A DNA stretch of 55,709 bases, from the NCBI GenBank assembly GCA_005885515.1, contig VAWK01000001.1, positions 1-55,709 on the forward strand, read 5' to 3'. Position numbers and translations under genes: made by a program. This document shows, in pieces, positions 23,532 through 25,932 of the stretch. Position 1 is the stretch's first letter; the number at the start of each line of letters is the position of its first letter. The notes beneath the pieces are model-generated. The model saw only the letters and a list, made by a program, of their open reading frames with translations, was not told the origin of the DNA and did no database searches. The DNA is from Actinomycetota bacterium. Lineage in GTDB: Bacteria > Actinomycetota > Thermoleophilia > Solirubrobacterales > Solirubrobacteraceae.

Positions 23532-23640
23532 CGCACAGCGCCGCGTCTCGCTCGACGCGGCACGCGTCCATCGGCGCCGGCGTGTGCGGCCGCCGGCCGC
23601 GCCGCGGGGCCGGCACGCCCACGGGGAGCGCGAATCGCTT

Positions 23641-23649
23641 TGCTATAGT
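23641..23649 (+). promoter_or_regulatory. Extended -10 promoter of the fusA leader
   Basis: TGC-TATAGT is the closest match to an extended -10 (TGn-TATAAT) in the window and lies in the 298-bp spacer between rpsG and fusA. Transcription would begin near 23655, right at an ATG, and run 110-130 nt to a strong terminator before reaching fusA. Confidence 0.55.
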
Positions 23650-23766
23650 CGAACATGCGTCGCGAACAGGCGGCTTGGGGTGTGTCTGCTCGCGTGCAAA
23701 CCGAAAAAGATGGAGACCTCGAGCGCGTAACGCAGCAGACCAGGTCCGCACCAGATCAGCAGCGCG

Positions 23767-23790
23767 TGGGCCCGAAGGGCCCATTTTTTT
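23767..23790 (+). terminator. Intrinsic terminator/attenuator in the fusA leader
   Basis: TGGGCCC and GGGCCCA form a perfect 7-bp stem around a GAA loop, followed at once by seven Ts (23784-23790). This is the only classical Rho-independent terminator seen in the window. It lies 39 nt upstream of the fusA start and downstream of the TATAGT promoter, so besides ending rpsL-rpsG transcription it would also stop transcripts that start in the leader. That makes it a likely attenuator controlling fusA (and tuf). Confidence 0.75.
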
Positions 23791-23829
23791 GCCAGGAATC
23801 AGCCCCCCGCCAACGAACACCGTCTCTCG

Positions 23830-25932
<2,103 letters not shown>

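What the first reader, a model, noticed from the sequence alone, without database searches (positions are those of the whole stretch)
23632..23829. fusA leader carries promoter, leaderless mini-ORF and strong terminator: candidate translation-sensing attenuator
An extended -10 (TGCTATAGT) lies upstream of an intrinsic terminator (7-bp TGGGCCC stem plus seven Ts) only 39 nt before fusA. Transcription would start about at the ATG 23655, whose frame runs through the terminator and past the fusA start in another frame. Ribosomes loading on this leaderless frame would open the hairpin, so fusA/tuf expression could respond to translation capacity. I know of no described attenuator of this design before EF-G in this group.
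Basis: partly seen in the sequence, partly recalled or inferred. Interest (0 to 1): 0.72.

Follow-up and report, generated by a model that had tools for sequence, protein, structure and literature searches.

The report
Six-codon-ORF attenuator before EF-G
In one order of actinobacteria the gene for the translation factor EF-G is preceded by its own promoter, a tiny six-codon reading frame and a transcription stop signal that can pair with each other, so that translating the tiny frame probably turns the gene down, which would tie the supply of elongation factors to how well the cell is translating.

Summary
The leaderless frame at ATG 23655 is not: among 101 loci with a recognised promoter only the window has an ATG there. 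The conserved element is another mini-ORF, 23710-23730 (METSSA, stop). A covariance model of mini-ORF plus terminator hits 107 of 399 class genomes at E<1e-3, once each, all in the window's order: 103 before fusA, 4 before tuf. The frame is six codons long in 97 of 105 loci parsed by script, with all three stop codons in use. In one large clade the mini-ORF RNA pairs with the terminator's arm and loop, with compensatory changes; elsewhere the segment after its stop codon does. Either pairing excludes the terminator. The window's copy keeps 10 of 11 of these pairs, but its equilibrium fold does not switch. The signal and direction are inferred, not measured. I found no description of it in my literature searches.

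The parts
23641..23649 (+). extended -10 promoter element TGCTATAGT of a fusA-specific promoter; no -35 recognised
   Evidence: TGCTANNNT-type box found 34-106 nt before the mini-ORF ATG in 101 of 105 loci
23656..23709 (+). 5' leader (transcript start about 23656, inferred from the -10 box); tends to fold more stably than shuffles
   Evidence: mean z -1.64, 63% of 100 leaders below -1
23710..23730 (+). conserved mini-ORF ATG GAG ACC TCG AGC GCG TAA (METSSA)
   Evidence: six codons in 97 of 105 scripted loci; stops TAG 79, TAA 19, TGA 7
23710..23724 (+). 5' strand of antiterminator P1 (23710-23713, 23717-23721, 23723-23724), inside the mini-ORF
   Evidence: covariation on 41 aligned sequences; window keeps 10 of 11 pairs, C23718-A23776 broken
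23770..23784 (+). 3' strand of P1 (23770-23771, 23773-23777, 23781-23784): overlaps terminator arms and loop
23730..23766 (+). linker from mini-ORF stop to terminator; forms hairpin P2 in relatives (weak in the window)
   Evidence: P2 covariation in relatives; window folds
23743..23749 (+). possible second antiterminator strand (GGUCCGC with GUGGGCC 23766-23772) or partner of mini-ORF GACCU
   Evidence: duplex, fold; covariation of this kind is shown in other clades only
23766..23790 (+). intrinsic terminator: stem 23766-23773/23777-23784, loop GAA, T7 23784-23790
   Evidence: stem covariation in relatives
23830..25932 (+). fusA, elongation factor G (regulated gene)
   Evidence: TIGR00484 EF-G, 1105.8 bits
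26025..27209 (+). tuf, elongation factor Tu, next gene downstream
   Evidence: TIGR00485 EF-Tu, 763.7 bits
23061..23531 (+). rpsG, ribosomal protein S7, upstream gene, 298 nt before fusA
   Evidence: TIGR01029; distance

Best explanation
The fusA leader is a ribosome-controlled transcription attenuator. RNA polymerase starts at the extended -10 promoter, transcribes a short leader and then a mini-ORF of six codons, a short linker and an intrinsic terminator about 40 nt before fusA. If ribosomes initiate on and finish the mini-ORF before the terminator is made, they cover the RNA strand that would otherwise pair with the terminator's 5' arm and loop; the terminator forms and the leader ends. 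If the mini-ORF is not translated in time, that strand (the mini-ORF itself in one large clade, P1; the segment just after its stop codon in other families, R2) pairs with the terminator region and transcription reads through into fusA-tuf. Shown here: the parts, their conservation, and covariation of competing pairings. Inferred: that the mini-ORF is translated, the direction, and the signal (general translation capacity, probably initiation or completion of the mini-ORF rather than one amino acid, as codons 3-5 vary). The purpose would be feedback: elongation factors are made when mini-ORF translation is poor.
For: Element once per genome in 107 of 399 class genomes at E<1e-3, all in families f1-f4 of the window's order, 103 before fusA and 4 before tuf. 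Chosen by EF-G and not by RNA, 39 of 40 loci with a readable fusA start have mini-ORF plus terminator. Six codons in 97 of 105, stops TAG/TAA/TGA. P1 covariation: 20 double-change cells against 4.3 +/- 1.9, no shuffle of 500 as high, and slides of 1-3 columns give 0-12. Terminator in the same alignment 16 against 4.9; P2 53 against 28.5. R2:R3 in f2-f4: 11 against 4.4, 0 of 500, permutation 0 of 2000. Equilibrium termination probability in the P1 clade (43 loci): 0.46 without ribosome, 0.97 with ribosome at the stop; the rise of 0.51 exceeds the highest of 20 linker shuffles (0.25), mini-ORF shuffles (0.17) and terminator swaps (0.38). In g8 genomes whose native-type fusA is gone the element stays before tuf.
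Against: The window's own copy shows no equilibrium switch: 0.97/0.96/0.97, nor do 3 other g1 loci (L122 0.70, L124 0.97, L127 0.98 without ribosome). Only 45 of 105 loci change by more than 0.2, in 22 of 33 genera at least one, in 16 of 33 by the median. Masking upstream RNA tends to favour a downstream terminator anyway, so only the excess over shuffles counts. In g37+g35 the rise is 0.11 and mini-ORF shuffles give 0.16; in f2-4 terminator swaps give 0.28 against 0.29. Permutation tests fail in several subsets: one sequence per genus 1360 of 5000 for P1 and 92 of 2000 for R2; g1 alone 1079 of 5000 and 455 of 2000. Third codon positions are freer only in codons 2 and 3. An SD-like motif is in 22% of loci against 12% expected, not in the window. 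Two loci keep promoter and terminator without a mini-ORF (L145, L245), as do 7 f3 loci. A ribosome merely slowed on the mini-ORF would give the wrong sign for EF-G feedback in the P1 clade.
Confidence: 0.6

Rival explanations
1. Stalling-type attenuator: a ribosome slowed at the start or first codons of the mini-ORF (low EF-G or EF-Tu) leaves the segment after the stop codon free to form the antiterminator; quick passage to the stop codon gives termination.
For: In f2-f4 the antiterminator strand lies after the stop codon and mean termination probability is 0.60 with a ribosome at the start against 0.91 at the stop. The sign fits EF-G feedback.
Against: In the P1 clade the mini-ORF itself is the antiterminator strand and a ribosome at the start already gives 0.90. 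Codons 3-5 vary, so no stalling codon is evident.
Confidence: 0.2
2. Protein-binding leader (S7, EF-G or another factor) with a mini-ORF of no regulatory weight.
For: Attenuators before rpsL and, in streptococci, before fusA are discussed in terms of S7 binding (PMC2965389, section 8 read). The 5' leader is folded.
Against: Fixed mini-ORF length with three different stop codons and pairing of the mini-ORF itself with the terminator. No Rfam family matches. S7 site similarity was not tested.
Confidence: 0.1
3. One reading: a leaderless frame from ATG 23655 whose ribosomes open the terminator.
For: The frame exists and is open through the terminator.
Against: ATG at this place in 1 of 101 loci with a recognised promoter; any start codon with a frame open through the terminator in 8 of 101.
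Confidence: 0.03
4. Ordinary terminator of the rpsL-rpsG unit with an unrelated fusA promoter.
For: The terminator follows rpsG in the window.
Against: Promoter, mini-ORF and terminator keep a narrow spacing also where rpsG ends 0.8-1.4 kb upstream (L106, L108, L112, L116-L118) or is not in the stretch held.
Confidence: 0.05

Closest known systems
[quoted passage not shown] section 8 and passages read)
   Same: Premature intrinsic terminator before fusA of the str genes with a predicted alternative antiterminator.
   Different: Other phylum; no mini-ORF is mentioned in the section I read; S7 binding is discussed as the signal. The mini-ORF, the promoter and the pairing of the mini-ORF with the terminator are not described there.
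vmlR uORF attenuator of Bacillus subtilis (PMC9226507; abstract and outline seen)
   Same: uORF, intrinsic terminator and antiterminator; translation state decides read-through.
   Different: There ribosome stalling prevents an anti-antiterminator and induces the gene; here no anti-antiterminator is evident over the whole set, and lack of translation is the predicted ON state.
ilvB and fthC uORF motifs (PMC11109978; passages seen)
   Same: uORF with start and stop conserved and a downstream intrinsic terminator; for fthC the speed of uORF initiation is suggested as the signal.
   Different: Other genes and other genera; ilvB codons encode the sensed amino acids, here the codons are free.
toiL uORF of E. 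coli topAI (PMC12121999; passages seen)
   Same: uORF that senses translation stress of several kinds.
   Different: Acts on the ribosome-binding site and Rho-dependent termination, not on an intrinsic terminator.
Amino-acid leader-peptide attenuators such as trp (recalled, no call)
   Same: Geometry of leader ORF, segment after the stop codon, terminator.
   Different: No regulatory codons; an untranslated leader there gives termination (recalled), here the predicted result is read-through.

Membership tests
Ribosome-mediated transcription attenuator (general kind) | Own promoter, short ORF and intrinsic terminator before the gene | tested here: met
Ribosome-mediated transcription attenuator (general kind) | Antiterminator that excludes the terminator and is reachable by a ribosome on the ORF | tested here: met
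   in relatives; in the window 10 of 11 P1 pairs kept but no equilibrium switch
Ribosome-mediated transcription attenuator (general kind) | Short ORF is translated and its translation changes read-through | not testable with these tools
   no ribosome profiling or reporter data
Amino-acid leader-peptide attenuator | Run of codons for the sensed amino acid | tested here: not met
   codons 3-5 vary among loci and no repeated codon is shared
rpsL-leader / S7-controlled leader | Attenuator before rpsL or fusA | tested here: met
rpsL-leader / S7-controlled leader | S7-binding site | not tested
   no binding model was compared
Rfam-described RNA (riboswitch, T-box, ribosomal leader) | Match to a curated covariance model | tested here: not met
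   no match in the leader at gathering score or at E up to 10
   ATG in 1 of 101 loci

The most novel reading that the evidence does not exclude
A homeostat for elongation factors that works as an initiation timer: the start codon of a six-codon ORF is itself part of the antiterminator, so each nascent transcript asks whether a ribosome arrives while polymerase copies the next 60-70 nt. Arrival ends the transcript; no arrival lets EF-G and EF-Tu be made. The peptide is irrelevant and the ORF length is what is selected. Different families of one order have rebuilt the antiterminator from different strands while keeping the logic.
Probability: 0.4. Interest if true: 0.78.

Novelty: new variant of a known kind. 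Interest (0 to 1): 0.62.

Why it matters
How bacteria outside the model phyla set the level of EF-G and EF-Tu is not known to me, and I found no paper on such a leader in my searches. If true, this is a simple cis element that reads ribosome availability directly and adjusts elongation factors at the level of transcription. The g8 genomes, in which the element stands before tuf and the native-type fusA is gone, make it testable whether the signal is EF-G itself or translation in general. The exact six-codon length and free sequence would also be a clean case of a regulatory ORF selected for its position and not its peptide.

Tried and rejected
Tried without result or against the reading. (1) Short DNA pattern for the mini-ORF over 399 class genomes: far too unspecific, 360 of 399 genomes match and the reversed control matches as often. 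(2) TTTGCTATAGT in the own genome with up to one mismatch: 1 match, reversed control 2, so the promoter motif alone is not informative. (3) First duplex test of linker against terminator: native -13.19, cross-species pairings -12.96 +/- 0.21, not significant; linker shuffles -11.86 +/- 0.26, since GGGCCC arms pair with nearly anything. (4) Best-helix permutation: f2-4 0 of 2000 and g37 1 of 2000 support R2; f2 alone 149, f3 alone 544, g1 455, f1 without g1 175, one per genus 92 of 2000 do not, or only weakly. (5) P1 permutation: f1 0 of 5000, f1 without g37/g35 1 of 5000; g1 1079, g37/g35 193, f2-4 3617, one per genus 1360 of 5000. Mini-ORF body shuffles support P1 in g1 (-15.13 against -11.26, lowest -13.70), less in other f1 (-11.37 against -10.35, lowest -11.61), and in g37/g35 and f2-4 the native mini-ORF pairs worse than shuffles. 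(6) The terminator stem in f2-f4 shows no covariation. (7) Equilibrium folding is not kinetic; no co-transcriptional simulation was run. In the four tuf-linked loci only L182 shows a predicted switch (0.11 to 1.0); L186, L187 and L217 start at 0.87-0.99.

Rows dropped or corrected: of 42 loci, L143 and L153 had no readable fusA start; L145 lacks the mini-ORF and was left out of the model. In one search L238 is a doubtful pick (a five-codon reading MDEPT fits the sequence better), so 97 of 105 may be 96. L002 and L222 have the same leader and are both in the 105. P1 alignment: 41 six-codon sequences of ten f1 genera chosen after seeing folds, so the choice favours P1; three of them (g3, g7, part of g14) pair poorly. 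Model hits L244, L246 and L247 were read and rejected as not leader elements. Rejected ideas: plain operon terminator, leaderless frame, Rfam riboswitch, amino-acid attenuator (see rivals and membership).

Full report
What was checked. The frame from ATG 23655 exists (23655-24149). The neighbours are rpsL, rpsG, fusA and tuf. A generic scan finds no more terminators in this 10 kb than in shuffles, so the case rests on conservation. The window lies in G000, a genome of 2.69 Mb in 79 contigs. A record titled Solirubrobacterales bacterium (L002) has exactly the leader of G386, a member of the window's family, which places the group in or near Solirubrobacterales, class Thermoleophilia.

Conservation. 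EF-G was found in 53 of 61 genomes, G000 included; I fetched the leaders of 40 of them and read them with the window and L002. Of these 42, 40 show a fusA start, and 39 of the 40 have the same set of parts: promoter, a short ATG frame, linker, terminator. The exception, L145, keeps promoter and terminator only. A covariance model of the 39 finds the window leader at E=6.4e-15 and nothing else better than E=2.5 in the own genome. Over 399 genomes of the class it finds 142 with E<=0.1; 107 have one hit each at E<1e-3 and these all lie in families f1-f4 of the window's order. After fetching the 74 not yet held, 103 of the 107 stand before fusA (two of them on contigs that end within the first codons) and 4 before tuf. 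In 78 named loci of other groups (L003-L080) no match is better than E=0.24.

The mini-ORF. In 105 loci parsed by script the frame has 6 codons in 97, 7 in 5, and 5, 8 and 9 in one each; start ATG 101, GTG 3, TTG 1; stop TAG 79, TAA 19, TGA 7 (L238 is doubtful). Of 11 further loci read by eye, 10 have six codons and L214 five. In L123 the usual stop is lost and a TGA has arisen one codon earlier, in L125 the stop is lost and the frame ends after nine codons. Codon 2 is Glu or Asp in 87 of the 97; codons 3-5 vary. Third codon positions are freer than first and second in codons 2 and 3 but not in 4-6, so the pattern is a mix of coding and pairing constraints. SD-like tetramers lie in the 15 nt before position -4 in 22% of loci (12% in shuffles, sd 3.1, highest 22%), peaking at -15 to -12; fusA itself has them in 14% of 108. 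The window has none. In 33 genera sampled, 30 have a six-codon example.

Promoter. A TGCTANNNT-type box is found 34-106 nt before the mini-ORF ATG in 101 of 105 loci; the other four did not match my pattern. ATG within 12 nt of the box occurs in the window alone; with GTG and TTG, 8 of 101 have a start there and a frame open through the terminator.

Competing pairings. In relatives of ten f1 genera (41 sequences, alignment A2) the mini-ORF can pair with the terminator: AUGG with the base of the 3' arm and codons 3-4 with the end of the 5' arm, loop and start of the 3' arm (P1). P1 is kept in 83.9% of cells and has 20 cells changed on both sides against 4.3 +/- 1.9 in shuffles, 0 of 500 as high; slid versions give 0-12. 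Clear cases are ACCUCG/CGAGG in most, CGAUUU/AGAUUG in genus g14, CCUCUG/CAGGGG in L130. P1 uses the same columns as the terminator stem, which itself covaries (16 against 4.9). A hairpin P2 after the stop codon is enclosed by P1 and also covaries (53 against 28.5). In f2-f4 (30 sequences, A3) the segment after the stop codon (for example UUCCGGGC) pairs with the terminator arm and loop (GCCCGGAA): 11 double changes against 4.4, 0 of 500, permutation 0 of 2000. Genus g37 shows a similar pairing (1 of 2000). These counts do not correct fully for relatedness, and one-per-genus permutation tests are not significant or marginal (92 of 2000; 1360 of 5000).

Predicted switch. Equilibrium termination probability over 105 loci is 0.62 without ribosome, 0.80 with one at the start codon and 0.94 with one at the stop; with shuffled linkers 0.78, 0.82, 0.83. 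In the P1 clade it rises from 0.46 to 0.97, more than in any of 20 shuffles of linker or mini-ORF or swaps of terminators. In f2-4 it rises by 0.29 (linker shuffles at most 0.16; terminator swaps 0.28), in g37+g35 by 0.11 (linker shuffles at most 0.05; mini-ORF shuffles 0.16). 45 loci rise by more than 0.2 and one falls; a rise is the expected direction for any masking upstream, so only the excess is evidence. The window stays at 0.97 in all states: its loop is GAA where most of genus g1 has GAG, which breaks one of 11 P1 pairs, and its mini-ORF can pair with the linker instead. 15 of 19 g1 loci are below 0.5 without ribosome. So the mechanism is best supported in the relatives and carried over to the window by homology.

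Distribution and loss. In 12 loci of five other families of the class (f5-f8, f11) fusA follows rpsG at short distance and the model finds nothing better than E=0.8; f9, f10 and f12 were not read. Inside the order, g34 (3 loci read) and g38 (2) have the promoter box without the mini-ORF and terminator, g36 (2) has neither, seven f3 loci of g22, g42 and g43 have promoter and terminator without a mini-ORF that I could recognise, and g41 has the full set. L145 and L245 lack the mini-ORF.

The tuf case. In four g8 genomes (G030, G302, G348, G372) the element stands before tuf. The best EF-G of these and of G387 is only 64-67% identical to the window's and lies elsewhere, whereas G243 of the same genus has a 77% EF-G directly after its element, with tuf behind it. 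The simplest reading is that the native fusA was lost and replaced while the element stayed with tuf. It suggests that the element serves the fusA-tuf unit and does not need fusA next to it.

Literature. Ten searches of the open library were made. [quoted passage not shown] No paper listed in these searches describes a mini-ORF attenuator before fusA, and none combines Thermoleophilia with leader peptide. Subscription papers are mostly not in the library.

Verdict. A real, conserved, order-specific transcription attenuator with a six-codon ORF, a new variant of a known kind. Its translation dependence and sign are inferred.

Noticed in passing
L182, L186, L187, L217 (genus g8): The element stands before tuf and not fusA; the EF-G of these genomes is a divergent copy elsewhere (64-67% identity), as if the native fusA had been replaced.
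   Followed up: partly
L253, L255, L261, L262, L271, L272, L274 (family f3): Short fusA leaders with the promoter box and a terminator but no recognised mini-ORF; several share GTCGCTC(A/G)GGCA after the promoter. Perhaps another kind of attenuator.
   Followed up: no
L250, L251, L252 (g34) and L254, L260 (g38): fusA promoter box kept, long leader, terminator and mini-ORF missing.
   Followed up: no
L145 and L245: Promoter and terminator kept, mini-ORF and linker apparently deleted.
   Followed up: no
5' leader, window 23656-23709 and relatives: The stretch between promoter and mini-ORF folds more stably than shuffles (mean z -1.64), often a hairpin with UCA in the loop; role unknown.
   Followed up: partly
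L106, L108, L112, L116, L117, L118: rpsG ends 0.8-1.4 kb before fusA, with other open frames between, so the str gene order is loosened in this order.
   Followed up: partly
L265, L268 (family f6): A strong hairpin with a short T stretch follows rpsG just before fusA, without mini-ORF; may be another fusA attenuator or a plain terminator.
   Followed up: no
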